Assembly (NCBI RefSeq): GCF_023343835.1
Contig: NC_064439.1
Span: 40,913,508 to 40,977,507, forward strand
Direction: 5' to 3'
DNA: 64,000 nucleotides
From: Lagopus muta
Lineage: Eukaryota > Chordata > Aves > Galliformes > Phasianidae
Shown: one piece after another, positions 312 through 51,265 of the stretch
Layout: each line of letters starts with the position of its first letter
How positions within the stretch are numbered: the stretch's first letter is position 1
Notes under the pieces: generated by a model
Told to the model about the DNA's origin: nothing
Seen by the model: only the letters and a program-made list of their open reading frames with translations
Databases searched by the model: none
Program-made: the position numbers and the translations under genes

Positions 312-2725
<2,414 letters not shown>

Positions 2726-6500: not shown

Positions 6501-8199
6501 AGGTACTTCAAGAACTGCAACATAGCTGCTGCTTCTGGGAGCAGTCAGAGAGTAAGAAAGAGCAAGGCAAAATGCTACTGCTCATGAGAGAGCCTTCTCT
6601 AATAAATCCAGCTATAATTAAGCTGGTGATAACGGGATCTTAAAATAACAGCGCATTCATTTTTGGAAATATTTATTTTCCTACTTGCCTTCTTCCATTT
6701 TCAGGCTCTTCTCCCTTGTTCTTTTCTCTCTGCTGGTTCAAGAAAACCACCTCCAATACATCCACCAGTGTGAAGCTGTTCACCAAAGATTTTGCAGCTT
6801 TCCTGAGCACTTAGCTTTACTCGTATTGATGCACTGTCATGTATGCATCCTAATTCTCCACTCCAATGTTTTTAAAGAACCCCTTATATAATAGAACTCC
6901 TGGAAATTCACTTCTTTTTAACATGCTGGGTAAATTATATTCTCAAATGTAGCAGCTTATTCTTTTTCTGTCTGCTCCCAGTAAGAGATCTGATTTCTGC
7001 TCACTGAATTCTCTGGCAAGTAGTCAGTTGGCTATAATGAAGGTAAAATTGGGTCCAAGAGTGTTAAATCAGATCTTCTCCAGCACAGAAAAGCATACCC
7101 AGTCTTTCAGCCATATCACTCTATTTGCAAACACCAGGAAGTCTTTTTTTTTTCTTTCCTTCTCTCTGAGCTGTGAAACATGATATGAAATGGCTGCTAA
7201 CAACTGTTTGAATTCTAGTAGATGGGGGCTAAAATTCAGCCAGCAGCTTGCTGCAAACCCAATATGTTCTGGTCGACACATAGACCAAGAACTGCAGCCT
7301 CTGTATCTGAATAGCAAGAACATTTGTGTGATCACCAAGAAAGTTAGTGTTATTGGTTTGTTGGAAGAGATTTTCTTTCTTTGTTTTGTGATTCAGAGCT
7401 TACTGCCCCTTACTTTGCTTGTCTCTGAAATTCAAAGTGCTAGTCACTCTTTAAAGTACAGTAATTTTAATTTGCTATAAAATTATTCTGAAGCTACAGC
7501 TGCATTTTCATTCACACTTGTAGTGTTCACCTAGTATATTTAAAAATGTTTGGGGCTTTGGGCCAAGTTTTACTATAAACCATAATAAATAGTTGCCTGA
7601 CTTACGTGGGTATCTTCCTTCAGCAATCTGTTTCTTGCTCTCAGATTGGCCTTTGCAGCTGACATACCTGCTTCTTTTCCTGCCAGCATTTTATATTTTC
7701 CAGCTGAAGCAAGTCATACCATGGTTCAGCAGTCTACCAGCGTTGTGACTCCTCAACACTATTTCCAGTCAAGTATTTTCAAGTTTCTTTGACCTCTGCC
7801 TTCCCAGCTCACCTGCTTTAAGAAAGCATGCTTATTGTCTAGCTTACAGAGTACTCTAGCATTAGAAATTCCTAACTTGTGTTTTTAAAATGGCGAGTAA
7901 GACTATGACAGCATACTCATACAAAGCCAACAACTGGCTTTGACTCACTGCTTGCTTTGCCCAGCTTGCTTATCTATTGACTTCAGTAAGGCTGCTAGTA
8001 TTCACTAGCCTCAGCAAGAAAGTACATGCAGCTCCATCTTAAAGAGGTACTTCTTTTCATAATCCTTGCTGGCTGCAGTTCACCTCTGCTCTCCCCACAC
8101 CCCTCACGATTTCCTGTTTTCTGTAGCCTCCCTCCTATTTGCGCCCTGCATAAGGCATAACTGGAGAGGAGAGAAATCGAGAAGAGATTACCAGTTCTG
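3591..8199. other. Intergenic, no recognisable gene
   Basis: AT-rich unique-looking sequence. Short open frames on both strands lack codon-like character or recognisable domains. A T-rich low-complexity run is at about 5150-5182. A short local duplication (GGGTTGTGA..TTTAGTTC) occurs at about 5733-5770. No repeat family is recognised with confidence. Confidence 0.6.
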
Positions 8200-27934: not shown

Positions 27935-28160
27935 TGTATGGGAACTGTTGAGTCAGGGCCTGAAGCACTGATTGATCACCTGAAGTGAGCACTGAGTCAG
28001 CCATGGAGCACAGGTGAAGGCGATTCAGCTGAGTGATGGAAGGAGTGGAGCCTGACTGCCAGACCCTATTTAAGGGCTGACTGCCATGGGGAAGGGTCTC
28101 TTTCTGGAGGTCCTTGTTTTTGGAGTTTTTCTGAGAGCCTAGCATATGGGTGAGCTTTTT
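27935..28160 (+). mobile_element. Old, diverged LTR related to the 45.3-kb provirus (partial or solo)
   Basis: Starts TGTATGGGAACTG, like the LTRs at 45311 and 50946, and can be followed alongside them. Shared features are TGAGTCA twice, the block GATTGATCACCTGA, the GAGCACAGGTGAAGGC segment, the TATTTAA promoter box (about 28067) and a GG|GTGAGC splice-donor-like site at about 28150. Many substitutions separate it from the young LTRs, and their second palindrome arms are absent here. Similarity fades after about 28160 in a T/ATT-rich run, so the 3' end is not defined. No gag or pol sequence follows, so this is a solo or truncated LTR. Confidence 0.8.
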
Positions 28161-28865
28161 TTTTTATTATTATTGTTATTATTTTCTTCTACGGTGGTAA
28201 TCCTTCTTGTTACATGACCTGTAAAATGCCAGCCTGCCCATGCCACTCTGCTAATTGCGTATTTGTTGATTGTATCTTCTGTTTGGTGGGGAAGGCTGGT
28301 GAACACGTGTGTAACTTGACCAAGGAAAGAAGTTTTGAGAAACAAGTGTTGTTGAGTTTCTTTTTAGAGCTGTGGGCATTGTTCTAAGAGCCATTTCATC
28401 CAGGCTGAACTGCCATCACAGGCTGTTGGTTATCACAGCGTGGTGCTCTTGAGGAATGAGCTGCCTCTTGGAAGAAAGAGGAAAAGCAAATTGCTCTTTG
28501 CGTGTGTGGAAGAGGTCAGAGGTAGAAAAATCTCAAAATGCTTCAGTTTAGGAATTACAGACCAGCCCTCTGGTCTAACAGTGCCATGCTAACTATTTGC
28601 AACAAAGTATGTACTGCATAAAGCTATCTGTGTGTCTGTATGAGTGCCTGCGTGCAAAGATGTTGTATTATACTTAAGCATTATGAAAACTGAGATATGT
28701 GTCATGTGTTGGCACTACACCAGTGACAAATCTATGCATATGAAAATCACAGTTTACTGGTGACATTTTAAAGTCTTCTTTCTCCCCTTTTTAAACAAGA
28801 TCTTCGTATACAGAGTCAATGCTATCATTAGCATATGCTTAGGACTTAATAGTAATAGCCTGTGA
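28161..28865. other. Intergenic, possibly including the lost 3' end of the old LTR
   Basis: Begins with a T-rich and (ATT)n stretch (28156-28185), then unique sequence. The first 130 bp or so could be a divergent U5 of the LTR to the left, but I cannot align it. No gene recognised. Confidence 0.4.
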
Positions 28866-43700: not shown

Positions 43701-45310
43701 AATGGTGGTAGTGTTGAAGATATTCCAGCACCGTATTTCCAAGCTCTTTTTTTGTGCTGCTCAGAAATGAGGGTTAATTTTTTTTAGTTCCACTTAGAAC
43801 TCCTTGTGCTTCAGTATCCATCAGCAGTGGGAGAGAAGTGCTTCCGAGCACTTACTCCCACCTTGGTCCATCCTGGCACAAACTTGTGTCCCTGGATAGA
43901 GTACCAGGTCCGCACAATCTGGTTAAACTCCAGTGTTTCACCAAGTGTACTTTACTCAGTTTATAAGTGCTGCATACCCTGTGCATACAGCTTTTTACTG
44001 TCACCTCACAAAGCTAATTGCTTGAGTTGTTTGAGAACACATTTGAATACAGAATGAGTCTTAGGGGTTACCTTAAGGCTATGGGGTTATGCTAGTGCAC
44101 ATAGCTGCTCTAGAGGCATGCTACATTAGTCACATTTATCAGTAACCACTACCAGATTAAAAATGTGACCTCAGACCGTGGTTTTGCAAGATATAAAGGA
44201 GTGAAAAAAAGCTTCTGAGGACTAGACTTTCACTTACATGCACATAGTACTTCTCAAAGCAAAAAGGAAAATAGAATGCTGTAAGCTGTCCTGTACAACA
44301 GAAACTTATAATGAATTTCTCCCAATCTGAAATGCTGTCTGATGCTCTCACTTAATAAAACTTTTGGCTCCAAGTCTGAATAAAATTACGCAGCCTGACA
44401 CGTTACTCTTAACAGTAATCAAGCCAATTATCTTGTTCTTGCCTGGAGCTGAAATCATCTGAGTAGGTAAACATCTGTTTACTAACTGCCAGCTCCTTGC
44501 TATTACCTTCACCCCATTTTACCTCACTGGTAATATTGAAAAAGAATTTACAAGTGCTGAAACACTCATAATATATGCAGCATTTCTGAACTTCTTGGCA
44601 CATTAGCCTTGAATCAATTCAGGCTAAATCACCTCACTACCACTGATTATTTAACTCTTTACTGTTGCACTGTTGAATTGTCTTTACTCTCAACCACAGG
44701 CACCTTACTTTAATGGCGTTTTTCATGAGTAGATGGGTTGTTCTTCCTTCCCCTTTAACGGATTGCAATAATCCATCATATAGACATGTGAGTTTTACAT
44801 TACCAGGGAGCAGTTGTTTCCATCCTCTGCTGTACATGGGCTGTAATGTGACTGTAGCTGCAGCTGATGTTGCAGAGCTGTGCTGTAAGTGTCCCACAGC
44901 AGGCACCCAACATGGCCTGCCTCAGCTAATATTTCCAATAGTAGTAACTTGCTTCATGGCATATTCCAATTACAGAGCACAATCTCTTCAGATGAATCTC
45001 TTGGCTGCCTTTTGCAGGCAAGAGAAAACTAGCTCTTCACAAAATGAGTAGGATCATCTTAAGAAATCTGAAGCCAAAATAGATAGAAGCACATCTCCTG
45101 AAAGCTCACACTTTGGCAGTGAAGCTGTTATTGGAGTAGTCAACTCTGAAAACAGAGTAAAACAGAAACGGCTGAAAAGCCTTAAATGAAGGGAGGGAAA
45201 ACCTCTGTGAAAAATACACAATCAATATTTTAACTATTTTGAAAGACTGTGGCTGAAGGAAGAGACAGGCAGGTGAGTACAGGGCATGTGGGATAAATTG
45301 AATGTATCAG
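40764..45310. other. Intergenic, no recognisable gene
   Basis: AT-rich sequence. A 15-bp direct duplication (ATAATATTAAAGACY) is at about 41381-41410. A more GC-rich patch at about 43360-43680 holds a full palindromic CRE (TGACGTCA, 43504-43511), but I cannot assign it to a promoter or LTR. No gene recognised. The last five bases (45306-45310, ATCAG) are the left target-site copy of the provirus. Confidence 0.5.
45306..45310. repeat. Left target-site duplication of provirus (ATCAG)
   Basis: ATCAG immediately before the 5' LTR matches ATCAG at 51261-51265 immediately after the 3' LTR. A 5-bp duplication is typical of class III ERV integration, and its exact match supports a recent, unrearranged insertion. 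Confidence 0.93.
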
Positions 45311-45625
45311 TGTATGGGAACTGCTGAGTCACGGCCTGAACCTCTGATTGATCACCTGAGGTGAGCCATGAGTCAGCCAGAGGAGCACAGGTGAAGGCAA
45401 TTCACCTGTGCTGCCAGAAGGGGTGGAGCCAGGCTCCACCCCTCCTGGACCTATTTAAGAGCTGGCTACCAGAGGGGAAGGATCTCTTCTGGAGATCCTC
45501 CTCTTTGATATCTTCTAGTGAGCTCAACCCAAGGGTAAGCTCTTCTACTTATTCTCTTTTGTGATCCCTGTTTGCTGTGCCTCACTCTTTTGAGTATATT
45601 GCAATTATAACATCTTGGTTATACA
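45311..45625 (+). repeat. 5' LTR (315 bp)
   Basis: Starts TGTATGGG and ends TTATACA. U3 features are AP-1-type TGAGTCA at 45325-45331 and 45369-45375, a palindrome CACCTGAGGTG at 45353-45363, and a 12-bp inverted repeat with a 5-nt loop (45384-45395 / 45401-45412) carrying CAGGTG/CACCTG E-boxes. A second 12-bp inverted repeat with a 1-nt spacer (45419-45430 / 45432-45443) follows. A TATTTAA box at 45452-45458 is the likely core promoter, putting the transcription start near 45480. A good splice-donor match AGG|GTAAGC lies at 45535. No AATAAA is seen in the LTR, so the polyadenylation signal is noncanonical or unidentified. Confidence 0.95.
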
Positions 45626-45627
45626 CT

Positions 45628-45645
45628 TGGCGAGCCAGGCAGGCT
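45628..45645 (+). promoter_or_regulatory. Primer-binding site, tRNA-Arg-like
   Basis: Two bases after the LTR end comes TGGCGAGCCAGGCAGG. I compared it with the complement of the 3' end of a vertebrate tRNA-Arg(ACG) recalled from general knowledge (TGGCGAGCCAGCCAGG..). The first 11 bases match, one differs, then four match. The position and the leading TGG fit a primer site. The tRNA identity is my inference. Confidence 0.7.
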
Positions 45646-45663
45646 GATTATACTGAAATTAAC

Positions 45664-47235
45664 ATGTCTTTCCTGTGGAACTTCTATAAATGGGTCAAGG
45701 GGGAGAACAATACTCCCCTAGAGAAAATGATTCCAGGGCAGATCCCAGGATTTGAGGGATCGCCCTATTACGAGTTAGCTGCCATCATTGAAAAATGGGG
45801 TCCCTTACGTGTTATGGGCAATCTCTCCCCATATCGCATGGCAGACTATTTTCAAGGACTTGGCAAGGACATTCTCATCACCAAAGAAAGACAATTGGCT
45901 GCCTCCATGGTGGCATGGCCACTATTAACCGCTTTAAATCATGCGGACTCAAGAAATAATACTTTAGAAACCGAAAATCAACTTTTGAAAGATCGCATTG
46001 AAAAGTTAGAGCACGAACTTGGCGTTTTAACGGGGAAGAAGCCAATTCTACATCTTCCTGTAAGCCAAATTCGTAATATTTCAATAAATGATGACCAGGC
46101 TCCTGAATCAACAGACTTCGTTGATCAGGACAACAAGAAATCCAAATCAGACCTTGAATGTCCAATTCAAACTGATCCGTTGGAGGTCCGTCCTGTGATA
46201 ACCCAAAAAACAAAAAAAGTACAGGACAGACCGGCAGGGGTGCCACCTGATCAATGGCCCCCTGCCCACACTCATTTACATGTGACAGCTCGGCCATACA
46301 CAGCAACAGAATTAATGGATTTAGTACAACGGTTTCGGCAGAAGCCCAGAGAAAGTGTGCCGGCTTGGTTATTGAGACTGTGGGATTCTGGGGCAGAAAG
46401 TGTCGTGGTGAATGGCCCAGAAATATCTAAGTTGGCCACCATGACTGTCCATCCTGCTCTTAGGCAAAGGTTATACGTGGGCAATCAATATCGTGATGAA
46501 AACCATTCCATATTAGAATGGTTAATGGCGGCCTGCCGTATGGTATGGCCGAATAAATCAGACATACCGTTACATACAGGTATGTGGTCCTCCATGGAGG
46601 ACCTTCAGAACTATATCCGTGAACTGGGTGTAAGAGAGGCCATCTATGAAGATACATTTGATGGCCCTGATATGGTTAAATTTTCAGCAGGGATGAGAGA
46701 TTTAATTCTACAACAAGCTCCCTCCCATCTGTACGGTACCTTAGTTTCAATATTAAATCCCCTTGTAGCATCAGAAGCCGTAGTCCAGCAGGTTGCCCAG
46801 TTAGTTGCCGATTTGGGAGAAACAGAACGCCTGCGGACTAGGCGCAATATTCGGTTTTTGGAGGAAGCAGAGGTCCTGCCGGTAAATAAAACCAGAATGC
46901 CGGCTACTCGAGCTCCTCGATCGGGACCCATAAGGGTATCCCGAAAACAAATGTTTAATGATTTAATTCGGGCTGGGGTCCAATTTGCTAAGATCGACCG
47001 CCAACCCAATCACGTCCTTCTCCAGCTCTGGAGACAACTAAAGGACAATCAAAAATTCCAGAGCTACCCTAAGAAATCAAGGGTAAGAGCTATAGAAAGG
47101 GTTCCAACAACAACATGGAACCTAGAAGATTTTATTGTTCCAAACAGGAAAAAGAAGCCACCTCAGGTGTCTCGGGCCACAATGCCTGAGCCATCAGAAG
47201 CAAAAGAACTGGCCCTAGCACAATTCATGCACTGA
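45664..47235 (+). CDS. gag: gag polyprotein of ERV-L-like provirus, intact
   Basis: 523-residue structural polyprotein expected to assemble intracellular particles. The start is the first ATG in the open frame after the LTR (45664). The frame stays open upstream into the LTR from 45577, but only with a GTG, so ATG is preferred. An aromatic N-terminus (MSFLWNFYKW) precedes a clear heptad-like coiled coil at about residues 101-122 (LETENQLLKDRIEKLEHEL), as in class III and spuma-type Gags. A capsid-like helical region with AWLLRLWDSGA lies in the middle (about 240-270). The C-terminus is basic (KKSRVRAI.., NRKKKPP). I see no CCHC zinc knuckle, so nucleic-acid binding probably relies on basic residues. 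The stop is TGA at 47233-47235. The pol frame (-1) overlaps the last 46 nt. No in-frame stops. Confidence 0.92.
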   Translation: MSFLWNFYKWVKGENNTPLEKMIPGQIPGFEGSPYYELAAIIEKWGPLRVMGNLSPYRMADYFQGLGKDILITKERQLAASMVAWPLLTALNHADSRNNTLETENQLLKDRIEKLEHELGVLTGKKPILHLPVSQIRNISINDDQAPESTDFVDQDNKKSKSDLECPIQTDPLEVRPVITQKTKKVQDRPAGVPPDQWPPAHTHLHVTARPYTATELMDLVQRFRQKPRESVPAWLLRLWDSGAESVVVNGPEISKLATMTVHPALRQRLYVGNQYRDENHSILEWLMAACRMVWPNKSDIPLHTGMWSSMEDLQNYIRELGVREAIYEDTFDGPDMVKFSAGMRDLILQQAPSHLYGTLVSILNPLVASEAVVQQVAQLVADLGETERLRTRRNIRFLEEAEVLPVNKTRMPATRAPRSGPIRVSRKQMFNDLIRAGVQFAKIDRQPNHVLLQLWRQLKDNQKFQSYPKKSRVRAIERVPTTTWNLEDFIVPNRKKKPPQVSRATMPEPSEAKELALAQFMH

Positions 47236-50200
47236 CAAGGGGTGTTAGTCCCCGTAGGGCCTCCAGACGGGACCGGAGGCCCTATGTAGAATTAACGATT
47301 TATTGGTCCCGAAAAAATATTCAGAGAGTGATGGCACTAGTAGATACTGGAGCAGAAACATCAATTATCTATGGAGATCCGGAAAAATTTCATGGTGACA
47401 GAGTGATGATTGGTGGTTTTGGGGGACAGACTATTCCTGTCACCCAAACATGGTTAAAATTGGGGGTTGGGCGTCTCCCACCCCGGGAGTACAAGGTGTC
47501 TATTGCCCCAGTCCAAGAATACATCCTGGGCATAGACATTCTATGGGGTCTGGCTCTCCAAACAACTGTGGGAGAGTTCAGACTTCGACAAAGATGTATC
47601 AGTATCCGGGCGGTGCAGGCAATATTAAGAGGCCATGCGAAACATGAGCCTGTTTGCCTGCCGAAGCCGCGCCGGATTACTAACGTTAGACAGTATAGAC
47701 TCCCGGGTGGGCAAGATGAAATATCGAGAACGGTGCAGGAATTAGAAAAAGTGGGCATTATAAGACCTGCACACAGCCCGTATAACTCCCCCATATGGCC
47801 GGTGCGAAAGTCGGATGGCACATGGAGGATGACAGTAGATTACAGAGAATTAAATAAGGTCACGCCGCCTATTCATGCGGCCGTACCCAATATTGCTTCC
47901 CTAATGGACACATTGAGTAGGGAGATAAAAACCTACCATTGTGTCCTAGATCTAGCAAATGCATTCTTCAGTATCCCAATTGCTGAGGAATCGCAAGATC
48001 AGTTTGCGTTTACGTGGGGAGGCAGGCAGTGGACCTTTCAGGTCCTGCCACAGGGGTACGTGCATTCACCAACGTATTGTCACAATTTAGTGGCGCGTGA
48101 CCTGGCTGACTGGAGAAAACCTGATGATGTTAACCTATATCATTATATTGATGATCTCCTGTTGACATCCGACTCACTGGAGGTAGTAGGACAGGCAGCT
48201 GATTCATTAACTGCCTATTTGCAACAAAGGGGATGGGCTATAAATCCCCAAAAGGTGCAAGGTCCAGGCCTGTCCGTAAAATTCCTGGGGGTGGTTTGGT
48301 CAGGAAAGACCAAAGTGCTACCCAGTGCTGTTATAGATAAGGTTCAGGCATTCCCAGTCCCTACAACATCAAAGCAGCTGCAAGAGTTTCTAGGTATATT
48401 GGGTTATTGGCGTTCCTTTATACCTCACCTAGCGCAGCTGCTAAGGCCACTATACAGACTCACAAAAAAGGGGCAGCTATGGGACTGGGGGAAAACCGAA
48501 CAGGATGCTTTCCAACAAGCAAAACTGGCAGTTAAACAAGCTCAGGCATTGGGTATATTCGATCCTACCCTCCCAGCCGAATTGGACGTTCATGTTACTC
48601 AAGACGGCTTCGGTTGGGGCCTGTGGCAGCGCCAGAGTTCTGTTCGGACCCCCATTGGTTTCTGGTCTCAGGTTTGGCACGGAGCAGAAGAAAGATACAG
48701 TATGATTGAAAAACAGTTATTGGCTGCCTATTCGGCATTACAGGCAGTAGAGCCAATAACTCAGACAGCTGCAGTTATAGTTAAGACCACTCTGCCAATT
48801 CAGGGGTGGGTGAAGGATCTGACCCACCTTCCTAAGACAGGGGTGGCCCAAGCACAAACAGTGGCACGATGGGTCGCCTATCTCAGCCAAAGGAGCAGTC
48901 TGTCTTCATCCCCCTTGAAAGAAGAACTTCAGAAGATCCTAGGCCCAGTTACGTATCACAGTGATGCACCAAAAGAAATACTGGTCGCTCCACCAGAGAA
49001 GAGTCCCGTTCAGGAGGGAAAATATCCTATCCCTGAAGATGCCTGGTACACAGATGGGTCCAGCAAGGGCAACCCGAGCAAGTGGAGAGCAATAGCATAC
49101 CATCCTTCCACCGAGACAATCTGGTTCGATGAGGGGGATGGTCAGAGCAGCCAATGGGCAGAACTGCGAGCCGTGTGGATGGTTATAACCAAGGAACCCG
49201 GTGATGGTATCCTGAACATCTGCACAGATAGTTGGGCTGTGTACCGGGGGCTCACTCTCTGGATTGCACAGTGGGCCACCCAGGAATGGACTATCCACGC
49301 CCGACCGATCTGGGGCAAAGACATGTGGTTAGATATATGGAATACGGTCAAACACAGGACTGTACGTGTCTACCATGTTTCTGGTCATCAGCCCCTACAG
49401 TCACCGGGAAACGATGAAGCCGACACATTGGCCCGAGTTCGATGGATTGAGAATTCACCATCTGAGAACATCGCCCGCTGGCTACATCAGAAGCTACGGC
49501 ATGCTGGACAAAAGACAATGTGGGCAGCTGCTAAAGCATGGGGACTGCCCATACAACTATCTGATATCGTCCAGGCATGCCAGGATTGCGACGCTTGCTC
49601 CAAGATGAGACCGAGATCGTTGCCCGAAACAACAGCCCATCTTGCTAGGGGACACAATCCTCTCCAGCGATGGCAGGTCGATTACATCGGGCCCCTTCCT
49701 CGTTCCGAAGGGGCAAGATATGCCCTGACCTGTGTCGACACTGCAAGTGGGCTACTGCAGGCCTATCCAGTACCGAAAGCAAACCAGGCATATACCATCA
49801 AGGCACTCACTAAACTGATGTCTGCCTACGGGACACCTCAAGTCATCGAGAGCGACCAAGGGACTCATTTTACTGGTGCAACGATACAGCGCTGGGCAGA
49901 AGAAAATAACATCGAATGGCGATTCCACCTGCCATATAATCCAACAGGGGCAGGCCTCATCGAACGTTATAATGGTATTCTTAAGGCTGCCCTGAAGACA
50001 GACTCCCAGTCCTTGCAGGGGTGGACAAAAAGACTGTATGAAACCCTGCGGGACCTGAATGAAAGACCTCGAGATGGCAGACCCAGTGCCCTGAGAATGT
50101 TGCAGACGACATGGGCCACCCCGCTTAGGATCCAAATTACGGGCACTGATCATCAGGTAAGACCCCAAATTGGTAATGAAAATAATCTTCTGCTCCCTGC

Positions 50201-50612
50201 CCCTGAAAACTTAGAGCCAGGTACCCATAAAATAAAATGGCCCTGGAAGGTGCAGGTAGGACCCAAGTGGTGTGGCCTACTTGCACCTTGGGGGAGACTA
50301 TTGGAGGTGGGAGGCTCAGTAGTCCCTCCAGTAATAGGTACATGGCCTACTGATATTATGGTCAACACTCCGATCTTTATTGCTAAAGGGACCCCCATCA
50401 TGTCCCTATGGCAGATCAGGACACCTCCTTTGGTGCCTGATATCGTTATGCAGCCGCAGATATCCGGCAAAAAGGTGTGGTACAGGCGGCCAGGACGTGC
50501 CCCAGTACAAGCGGAAGTGTTGACCCAAGACAGAAATACGGCCTGTATCTTGCCCTGGAGAGCAGACCTTCCCCTCCTGGTACCTGTAAAACATCTGTAT
50601 TACTCCCCGTGA
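47190..50612 (+). CDS. pol: pol polyprotein (protease, RT, RNase H, integrase), intact
   Basis: An open frame of 1140 codons, -1 relative to gag, opens at 47190 after a stop. The first ATG is 47331 and the protease active site LVDTGA is just after it (Asp at 47343). It is followed by GFGGQ and an ILGIDIL segment typical of retroviral aspartic proteases. The reverse transcriptase has LDLANAFFSIPI, LPQGY and the catalytic YIDD at 48144-48155. RNase H residues are visible in YTDGSS (Asp at 49053), AELRAV, CTDSWAV and GNDEAD. Integrase has an N-terminal zinc-binding H-x4-H (49485, 49500) and C-x2-C (49578-49598), then the D,D-35-E triad at 49680, 49854 and 49962 with exact spacing. About 170 residues follow the core, ending in a basic module (KKVWYRRPGR..). 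No stops or frameshifts. Expression from gag is unexplained, because no canonical slippery heptamer is seen. Sequence upstream of the ATG continues protease-like (PYVEL), so fusion to Gag is more likely than initiation at 47331. Confidence 0.92.
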   Translation, partial: AIRSKRTGPSTIHALTRGVSPRRASRRDRRPYVELTIYWSRKNIQRVMALVDTGAETSIIYGDPEKFHGDRVMIGGFGGQTIPVTQTWLKLGVGRLPPREYKVSIAPVQEYILGIDILWGLALQTTVGEFRLRQRCISIRAVQAILRGHAKHEPVCLPKPRRITNVRQYRLPGGQDEISRTVQELEKVGIIRPAHSPYNSPIWPVRKSDGTWRMTVDYRELNKVTPPIHAAVPNIASLMDTLSREIKTYHCVLDLANAFFSIPIAEESQDQFAFTWGGRQWTFQVLPQGYVHSPTYCHNLVARDLADWRKPDDVNLYHYIDDLLLTSDSLEVVGQAADSLTAYLQQRGWAINPQKVQGPGLSVKFLGVVWSGKTKVLPSAVIDKVQAFPVPTTSKQLQEFLGILGYWRSFIPHLAQLLRPLYRLTKKGQLWDWGKTEQDAFQQAKLAVKQAQALGIFDPTLPAELDVHVTQDGFGWGLWQRQSSVRTPIGFWSQVWHGAEERYSMIEKQLLAAYSALQAVEPITQTAAVIVKTTLPIQGWVKDLTHLPKTGVAQAQTVARWVAYLSQRSSLSSSPLKEELQKILGPVTYHSDAPKEILVAPPEKSPVQEGKYPIPEDAWYTDGSSKGNPSKWRAIAYHPSTETIWFDEGDGQSSQWAELRAVWMVITKEPGDGILNICTDSWAVYRGLTLWIAQWATQEWTIHARPIWGKDMWLDIWNTVKHRTVRVYHVSGHQPLQSPGNDEADTLARVRWIENSPSENIARWLHQKLRHAGQKTMWAAAKAWGLPIQLSDIVQACQDCDACSKMRPRSLPETTAHLARGHNPLQRWQVDYIGPLPRSEGARYALTCVDTASGLLQAYPVPKANQAYTIKALTKLMSAYGTPQVIESDQGTHFTGATIQRWAEENNIEWRFHLPYNPTGAGLIERYNGILKAALKTDSQSLQGWTKRLYETLRDLNERPRDGRPSALRMLQTTWATPLRIQITGTDHQVRPQIGNENNLLLPAPENLEPGTHKIKWPWKVQVGPKWCGLLAPWGRLLEVGGSVVPPVIGTWPTDIMVNTPIFIAKGTPIMSLWQIRTPPLVPDIVMQPQISGKKVWYRRPGRAPVQAEVLTQDRNTACILPWRADLPLLVPVKHLYYSP
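47239..47286 (+). promoter_or_regulatory. Hairpins at the gag-pol junction
   Basis: Just after the gag stop there is a small GGGG/CCCC stem (47239-47242 with 47250-47253). It is followed by a strong 12-pair stem, 47253-47264 with 47275-47286, including one G-U pair and a core of AGGGCCTCC/GGAGGCCCT with a 10-nt loop. The two stems compete for base 47253 only. Position at the frame change suggests a role in pol expression (frameshift, bypass or reinitiation). This is inference. Confidence 0.6.
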
Positions 50613-50932
50613 GTCTGTGAGCCTTCAGGACCACCGGAAGGAACAAAATGCCATCAAGCGTTCCAGTGTTGCTGTCAGATCACGTACAACACCCGGTGAT
50701 GGTCTACATGGGACTGATGGAACATAGAATGGACTTGCACCTCAGGACTTCATACCTCCAGGCACATCATCGAGCACTGGCCCATAGAAGAATATGGACA
50801 TCCACTAATCATCACTTGTCTTGAACTGTACCAACATACGTCGCGATAAAATTGTATAAGCGTCGCGATATACCGGATCTCTGTATTAGGGAAAGCTTAC
50901 CCTTTTGTTAACCTGATCATTGGTTCACGCCG
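50613..50932 (+). other. Noncoding tail between pol and the polypurine tract
   Basis: About 320 bp with no env-like frame. It contains CGTCGCGATA twice (50839-50848 and 50861-50870), 12 bp apart, each with the palindrome TCGCGA. The intact CpGs here fit a recent insertion. Function unknown; a packaging, export or 3'-processing element is possible. Confidence 0.7.
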
Positions 50933-50945
50933 TGAAGGGGTGGAG
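50933..50945 (+). promoter_or_regulatory. Polypurine tract
   Basis: The purine-rich run GAAGGGGTGGAG (interrupted by one T) directly abuts the 3' LTR, as required for plus-strand priming. Position is decisive. Confidence 0.8.
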
Positions 50946-51260
50946 TGTATGGGAACTGCTGAGTCACGGCCTGAACCTCTGATTGATCACCTGAGGTGAG
51001 CCATGAGTCAGCCAGAGGAGCACAGGTGAAGGCAATTCACCTGTGCTGCCAGAAGGGGTGGAGCCAGGCTCCACCCCTCCTGGACCTATTTAAGAGCTGG
51101 CTACCAGAGGGGAAGGATCTCTTCTGGAGATCCTCCTCTTTGATATCTTCTAGTGAGCTCAACCCAAGGGTAAGCTCTTCTACTTATTCTCTTTTGTGAT
51201 CCCTGTTTGCTGTGCCTCACTCTTTTGAGTATATTGCAATTATAACATCTTGGTTATACA
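50946..51260 (+). repeat. 3' LTR (315 bp), identical by eye to 5' LTR
   Basis: Base-by-base reading against 45311-45625 shows no difference and the same length (offset 5635). It carries the same TATTTAA (51087-51093), AP-1, palindromes and splice donor (51170). As the last complete promoter of the element in the plus direction, it faces the CpG island at 56 kb. Confidence 0.95.
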
Positions 51261-51265
51261 ATCAG
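51261..51265. repeat. Right target-site duplication of provirus (ATCAG)
   Basis: Pairs with 45306-45310. Confidence 0.93.

What the first reader, a model, noticed from the sequence alone, without database searches (positions are those of the whole stretch)
45306..51265. Apparently full-length, very young ERV-L-like provirus with intact gag and pol
Seen directly: two 315-bp LTRs with no difference found by eye, an exact 5-bp target duplication, a primer site, a polypurine tract, and two long uninterrupted frames with all expected protease, RT, RNase H and integrase residues. LTRs are identical at insertion and then diverge (established knowledge), so this copy is recent. Intact class III elements are uncommon in bird genomes, to my knowledge, and this copy may come from a still active lineage.
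Basis: partly seen in the sequence, partly recalled or inferred. Interest (0 to 1): 0.88.

Follow-up and report, generated by a model that had tools for sequence, protein, structure and literature searches.

The report
Young bird endogenous retrovirus, recently multiplied
This is a complete, very recently inserted copy of a virus-derived jumping element without an envelope gene; its family has just multiplied in this gamebird genome, is of a kind already known from chicken, and its nearest relative found outside gamebirds lies in a mole.

Summary
Two identical 315-bp LTRs (45311-45625, 50946-51260) flanked by ATCAG enclose intact gag (523 aa) and a 1140-aa pol frame, with primer site, polypurine tract and no env. 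It is a class III ERV but not ERV-L proper: pol has no dUTPase, and by description it fits the ERV-S/AviERVIII (GGERVL18) kind. It is not rare in its own genome: of 131 scored RT matches (1803 candidates), 63 lie in a 1140-aa frame without a stop, and 17, window included, share one RT protein. Of 31 LTR pairs found in a systematic sample of 40 copies, 11 are identical over the 315-column core. Variants shared by several copies are mostly silent, singletons are not, as expected from serial copying by functional RT. So this is one copy of a large, very recent, env-less burst. The host is probably rock ptarmigan. Close relatives carry the names of six galliform species and one mole, Talpa occidentalis (RT 70%, RNase H 60%). 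Some other copies bear extra tandem units at the U5 end. The kind is known (Huda 2008; Vargiu 2016); the burst and the mole link are the interesting parts. Present-day activity is not shown.

The parts
45306..45310 (.). target-site duplication, left copy (ATCAG)
   Evidence: a 5- or 6-bp duplication was also found in 25 of 31 other copies tested
45311..45625 (+). 5' LTR, 315 bp, TGT...ACA; TATTTAA at 45452; two palindromes with 12-bp arms at 45384-45412 and 45419-45443
45628..45645 (+). primer-binding site; matches the recalled 3' end of vertebrate tRNA-Arg(ACG) at 15 of 18 bases, 11 in a row from the CCA end
   Evidence: tRNA letters recalled, from no call
45664..47235 (+). gag, 523 aa; MHR QKPRESVPAWLLR at residue 226; no CCHC zinc knuckle; ends in TGA
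47190..50612 (+). pol open frame (PR-RT-RNase H-IN), -1 relative to gag, 1140 aa stop to stop; no dUTPase found
47239..47285 (+). two adjacent predicted RNA hairpins just after the gag stop; a possible but unsupported aid to pol expression
   Evidence: z -2.94 for 47233-47300; z -1.80 for the longer stretch; no compensatory change seen in 15 aligned copies
47274..47615 (+). protease stretch (LVDTGA at 47337)
47802..48293 (+). reverse transcriptase core (YIDD at 48144)
49041..49436 (+). RNase H
49485..49943 (+). integrase HHCC and rve core
50934..50945 (+). polypurine tract GAAGGGGTGGAG
50946..51260 (+). 3' LTR, identical to the 5' LTR
51261..51265 (.). target-site duplication, right copy (ATCAG)

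Best explanation
A very young provirus of an env-less class III (ERV-S/AviERVIII-type) family that has just amplified inside a galliform germ line, most likely by intracellular retrotransposition. Inferred cycle: the LTR drives a genomic RNA; Gag (MHR, no zinc knuckle) packages it; pol, in the -1 frame, is made through a recoding or reinitiation step near the gag stop, or from an RNA of its own, which is not resolved; tRNA-Arg probably primes DNA synthesis; integrase inserts the DNA with a 5- or 6-bp duplication. Shown: anatomy, identity of the LTRs, many near-identical open copies, purifying selection on RT in the replicating lineage. Inferred: intracellular spread, primer identity, current activity.
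For: Identical LTRs and duplication. LTR search of the window's own genome: 48 rows, of which 40 span the whole LTR (the window's own two included) at 99-100%; 40 of 2539 candidates were scored. Among these 40 I see 13 LTR pairs: 11, the window's included, have starts 5,635-5,693 bases apart, leaving no room for an env beside gag and pol; two are internally shortened (4,705 and 811). RT search: 131 scored of 1803 candidates, 63 in a 1140-aa frame without a stop, 17 (window included) at the top score with 100% identity (counted by hand). LTR pairs: 40 copies fetched (every third of the 131, window left out, last three of the series not fetched), both LTRs found in 31, 11 identical over the 315-column core, one of which differs in U5 unit number beyond it. 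RT pieces of 19 copies (every seventh) plus the window: variants in two or more copies 34 silent / 18 replacement / 0 stop; singletons 53 / 82 / 9, Fisher p 0.0018 without the stops, 0.00056 with them. Age of this copy from 0 of 315 differences: median 0.58 My, 95% bound 2.5 My at 1.9e-9 per site per year; bound 6.3 My at 7.5e-10.
Against: Expression, particles or a new insertion were not observed. Only the best-scoring candidates were scored, so the sample leans to young and intact copies, and an env-bearing form with another LTR could have been missed. In 9 of 40 sampled copies both LTRs were not found, and the older sampled pairs differ by up to 30 bases, so the family also has an older layer. 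Gene conversion between LTRs could make a copy look younger. No canonical slippery heptamer was found in gag frame from 47160 to 47290, so how pol is expressed is open. The gag search of the genome did not complete, so counts of intact gag are missing.
Confidence: 0.85

Rival explanations
1. A recently infectious virus rather than an intracellular element: repeated germ-line infection with env supplied by another retrovirus or by env-bearing relatives.
For: HERVS, which PMC4724089 pairs with the avian family, carries a class I env (passages). The mole sister relation needs some passage between hosts at some time.
Against: All 11 near full-length LTR pairs seen among the 40 LTR matches are 5.64-5.69 kb from start to start, leaving no room for env, and the window has 333 bases between pol and LTR with no Pfam match in its longest forward frame.
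Confidence: 0.1
2. The copies are an assembly or segmental-duplication effect rather than separate insertions.
For: Several near-identical copies lie close together on small contigs (C37, C57), two of them 5.7 kb apart on C57.
Against: 25 of 31 sampled pairs have a 5- or 6-bp target duplication, 24 different sequences among the 25; flanks differ in the pairs printed; copies lie on many contigs.
Confidence: 0.04
3. The copy is older and looks young through LTR gene conversion.
For: One pair in the sample joins two different LTR types (L039/L040, 11 differences), so exchange between copies occurs.
Against: Both open frames are intact, and 11 of 31 sampled pairs are identical over the core, which would need conversion in each of them.
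Confidence: 0.05

Closest known systems
AviERVIII / GGERVL18 of chicken (Repbase; PMC4724089, passages; PMC2169234, passages)
   Same: Avian class III pol said to cluster with HERVS; two GGERVL18 LTR insertions found only in two Gallus species show activity within that line. HERVS lacks dUTPase and zinc fingers, as here.
   Different: No GGERVL18 sequence is held here, so identity of the two families is inferred from description, not compared.
HERV-S / HERV18 of humans (PMC4724089, passages)
   Same: Class III pol without dUTPase, gag without zinc fingers.
   Different: HERVS has a class I env and is old (the class III HERV supergroup is given 13-42% LTR divergence); this element has no env and identical LTRs.
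ERV-L (MuERV-L, HERV-L)
   Same: MHR, no Cys-His motif, HX4HX28CX2C integrase, pro and pol in one frame, no env (passages of PMC8278194).
   Different: ERV-L pol ends in a dUTPase; here none was found. The dUTPase-bearing relative nearest in RT reaches 56% there and 35% in RNase H (P0013).
GGERV10 of chicken (PMC2329609 read whole; PMC5260121 parts 1-2 of 4)
   Same: LTRs identical or one base apart, gag of about 1,600 and pol of about 3,300 bp, 0-3 My old.
   Different: LTR ends TGTTG/CAACA as printed; here TGTAT/ATACA. PMC5260121 judged its 49 full-length GGERV10 copies unable to retrotranspose.

Membership tests
class III (ERV-L/ERV-S, spuma-like) ERVs | RT falls with class III pols and not with gammaretroviral or foamy RT | tested here: met
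   46 rows, the window among them, form one group (100/98) apart from SFV and from MLV with one Passer row. Only two outside references, and they did not form one outgroup; SFV sits on a long branch. Against: by pairwise score RT is nearer an MLV-type chain (161 bits) than SFV (138 bits).
class III (ERV-L/ERV-S, spuma-like) ERVs | gag with MHR QX3EX4(hydrophobic)X2R and without CCHC | tested here: met
   QKPRESVPAWLLR at 226; no CCHC, 2 cysteines in all; criterion from PMC8278194 (passages)
class III (ERV-L/ERV-S, spuma-like) ERVs | LTR termini TGT...ACA | tested here: met
   TGTATGGG...GTTATACA; criterion from PMC8278194 (passages)
ERV-L proper | dUTPase at the C end of pol | tested here: not met
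   no PF00692 match in pieces covering pol to its stop
ERV-L proper | integrase HX4HX28CX2C and DX58DX35E | tested here: inconclusive
   HX4HX28CX2C met; DX57DX35E, one residue off
ERV-L proper | tRNA-Leu primer site (recalled) | tested here: inconclusive
   site fits recalled tRNA-Arg(ACG) at 15 of 18; no leucine tRNA was compared in a call
ERV-S / AviERVIII (GGERVL18) | class III pol without dUTPase, gag without zinc finger | tested here: met
   definition from PMC4724089 (passages)
ERV-S / AviERVIII (GGERVL18) | sequence groups with the HERVS and AviERVIII references | not testable with these tools
   no such reference was found here; only the bird-plus-mole clade supports it indirectly
ERV-S / AviERVIII (GGERVL18) | associated class I env (reported for HERVS) | tested here: not met
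   333 bases from pol stop to 3' LTR, no env match; whether AviERVIII has an env was not seen in the passages read
GGERV10 | LTR termini TGTTG and CAACA | tested here: not met

The most novel reading that the evidence does not exclude
An env-less ERV-S-type lineage is still jumping in ptarmigan germ lines; its sister lineage in moles means the group passed between birds and mammals, and its LTRs grow by tandem U5-end units that are born in the 5' LTR of one copy and inherited by both LTRs of its offspring.
Probability: 0.35. Interest if true: 0.72.

Novelty: new member of a known kind. Interest (0 to 1): 0.52.

Why it matters
Young coding class III elements allow direct study of how an env-less retroviral lineage multiplies in a bird germ line and how the host silences it. 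Dozens of open copies, many with identical or nearly identical LTRs, make insertion polymorphism in wild grouse and ptarmigan testable. A bird-mole sister relation would be evidence of passage between classes in a group whose human members are old and defective.

Tried and rejected
Not GGERV10: the LTR ends differ. Not ERV-L proper: no dUTPase. A canonical -1 slippery heptamer in gag frame: none from 47160 to 47290. Pol starting at the ATG at 47331: unlikely, since the protease match begins upstream of it at about 47274. A pseudoknot between the loop CGGGACC and GGTCCCG at 47306-47312: seen by eye in the window, but in the 15 aligned copies partner bases change without compensation, so not claimed. 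A frame arrangement peculiar to this copy: rejected, all 15 alignable copies of 20 fetched (two of them covering only the second part) keep TGA at the same place and show no inner gap up to 47330; 5 could not be aligned. Self-priming: no 7-base piece of the complement of the 25 bases after the 5' LTR occurs in 45311-45665. Relatives in viral contigs: none by gag or RT. Solved structures related to gag by sequence: none at E up to 1. Gag fold: the structure service was busy at all nine requests. W linkage of contig C57: the marker search did not complete. Papers on such a family in Lagopus: one search for 'Lagopus' with 'endogenous retrovirus' listed 12 papers, one on galliform alpharetroviruses and none whose title is on class III elements. 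Wicker 2005 is not held.
Full report
What is there. The window holds a complete provirus between two ATCAG duplications (45306-45310, 51261-51265). The LTRs (45311-45625, 50946-51260) are 315 bp and identical. Behind the 5' LTR lies a primer site (45628-45645) that fits the recalled 3' end of tRNA-Arg(ACG) at 15 of 18 bases. gag runs from 45664 to 47235 (523 aa), and the pol frame from 47190 to 50612 (1140 aa stop to stop), in the -1 frame with a 46-base overlap. Pieces of pol match RVP (E 1.5e-5; below the cut-off in the shorter piece), RVT_1, RT_RNaseH_2, RNase_H and rve. A polypurine tract abuts the 3' LTR. There are 333 bases and no env between pol and the 3' LTR.

What kind it is. Gag has an MHR and no zinc knuckle, the LTR ends are TGT...ACA, and the integrase zinc site is HX4HX28CX2C. 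These are class III features as given in the Xenopus XtERV-S paper (PMC8278194, passages). The dUTPase of ERV-L was not found. PMC4724089 (passages) states that HERVS lacks dUTPase, that HERVL and HERVS gags lack zinc fingers, and that HERVS Pol clusters with AviERVIII, called GGERVL18 in Repbase. I therefore place this element with the ERV-S/AviERVIII kind. The last step, a comparison with those reference sequences, could not be made here. By pairwise score the RT is nearer an MLV-type chain than a foamy one (161 against 138 bits), though in the tree it groups with class III rows.

Relatives. Protein searches found gag relatives in 7 clusters (capped at 8000 candidates), RT relatives in 381, of which 120 were listed, and RNase H-integrase relatives in 9 (capped likewise). 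The close named ones are galliform: Phasianus colchicus, Tympanuchus pallidicinctus, Numida meleagris, Centrocercus urophasianus, Cyrtonyx montezumae and Lagopus muta. The one close relative named outside birds is LOC129144682 of the mole Talpa occidentalis: RT 70% over 207, RNase H 60% over 267, integrase 53% over 235 residues. In the 50 rows printed, the next RT outside galliforms and mole is 56%, the next RNase H match over 200 residues is 40%, and the common class III elements of other birds are about 44% in RT. Trees join the mole to the galliform rows with 99/99 (RNase H) and 100/100 (integrase), but only 92/51 in RT, where the mole row is truncated. The RNase H tree warned that its join of a long crane row to the galliform-mole group may be false. 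Since two searches were capped, decayed mammalian relatives may have been missed. A bird-mole sister relation is therefore supported among what was found, not proven against unseen relatives.

Its own genome. The window lies in an assembly of 1,026,658,476 bases in 165 contigs. The LTR gives 40 whole-length matches at 99-100%, the window's two included; 40 of 2539 candidates were scored. The RT piece gives 131 scored matches out of 1803 candidates. By hand count, 17 (window included) share the top score at 100% identity, and 63 lie in a 1140-aa frame with no stop reported; five further rows show 1140 with one stop. I name no copy. 45 of the 131 lie on one 6.80-Mb contig, C57, 0.66% of the assembly, about 52-fold enrichment (counted). 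Nine of these 45 belong to the 63. C57 may be the W chromosome, which is known as an ERV refuge in birds (PMC8310711, passages), but the marker search did not complete.

Age and selection. I fetched both LTR regions of 40 copies, every third of the 131, leaving out the window and the last three of the series. Both LTRs were found in 31, not in 9. Eleven pairs are identical over the compared 315 columns (one of them differs in U5 unit number beyond these), 4 differ at one base, and the most diverged differs at 30. For the window copy, 0 of 315 gives a 95% upper age of 2.5 My at 1.9e-9 per site per year (rate printed in PMC5260121), or 6.3 My at the slower rate of PMC2329609. In RT pieces of 20 copies (window plus 19, every seventh of the 131), variants seen in two or more copies are 34 silent, 18 replacement and 0 stop; singletons are 53, 82 and 9 (Fisher p 0.0018 without stops). 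This is the pattern of a lineage that replicates through functional RT and whose copies then decay. In a separate, chosen set of RT pieces, six copies with identical RT protein differ from the window by 3-8 bases, all silent; that they are all silent follows from how they were chosen.

LTR growth. Other copies have longer LTRs: 5' lengths of 344 (9), 360 (4) and 367 (4) recur beside 315 (4) in the 31 pairs. In the copies of the 344 and 367 classes that I printed, the extra 29 or 52 bases repeat the end of U5 just before the primer site. Both lengths could be set in 24 of 31 pairs; 21 agree. Of the three that differ, one is a doubtful call with a 4-bp duplication (L037/L038; both LTRs carry the unit). 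The other two (L023/L024, 417 against 315; L043/L044, 373 against 344) have the longer 5' LTR. Since the U5 of both new LTRs is copied from the 5' end of the RNA (established knowledge), a unit gained in a 5' LTR would pass to both LTRs of its offspring. This reading is mine and rests on two pairs.

How pol is made. The gag stop TGA and the -1 register are kept in all 15 alignable copies of 20 fetched. No canonical slippery heptamer exists there. Two hairpins are predicted after the stop. Frameshift, reinitiation or a separate RNA remain open.

Literature. Young ERVs with identical LTRs and intact gag and pol were reported from chicken in 2008 (PMC2329609, read whole), although a later study judged its GGERV10 copies unable to move (PMC5260121, parts 1-2 of 4). 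So the kind is known. What seems new is the size and freshness of this burst in the host, and the mole sister. One search for Lagopus with 'endogenous retrovirus' listed 12 papers, none titled on class III elements; a find in the assembly paper's main text gave no 'retrovirus' and no 'LTR'.

Noticed in passing
window 27935-28168: A diverged relative of the LTR (76% over 245 columns, same strand, matching LTR bases 1-243), probably an old solo or partial LTR: the family or its ancestors were active in this host line long before.
   Followed up: partly
window 45417-45428 and 51052-51063: The exact 12-base polypurine tract recurs inside U3, overlapping one arm of a perfect palindrome with 12-bp arms just upstream of the TATA-like box; a second palindrome with 12-bp arms lies beside it. 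A second plus-strand start is conceivable.
   Followed up: partly
L009-L088, ends of LTRs: U5-end tandem units of 29 or 52 bp make LTR length classes; in L023/L024 and L043/L044 the 5' LTR has more units than the 3' LTR.
   Followed up: partly
L009-L088, flanks: Target duplications are 5 bp in 17, 6 bp in 8 and 4 bp in 1 of 31 pairs, none found in 5: a mixed stagger within one family.
   Followed up: partly
G000 contig C57 (6.80 Mb): 45 of 131 scored RT copies lie on 0.66% of the assembly; possibly the W chromosome.
   Followed up: partly
L039/L040: A provirus whose two LTRs belong to different LTR types (11 differences), as after recombination or template switching.
   Followed up: no
window 1393-2394: A coding exon with the start of PIK3R4 (VPS15) on the minus strand; the provirus lies upstream of this gene.
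   Followed up: partly
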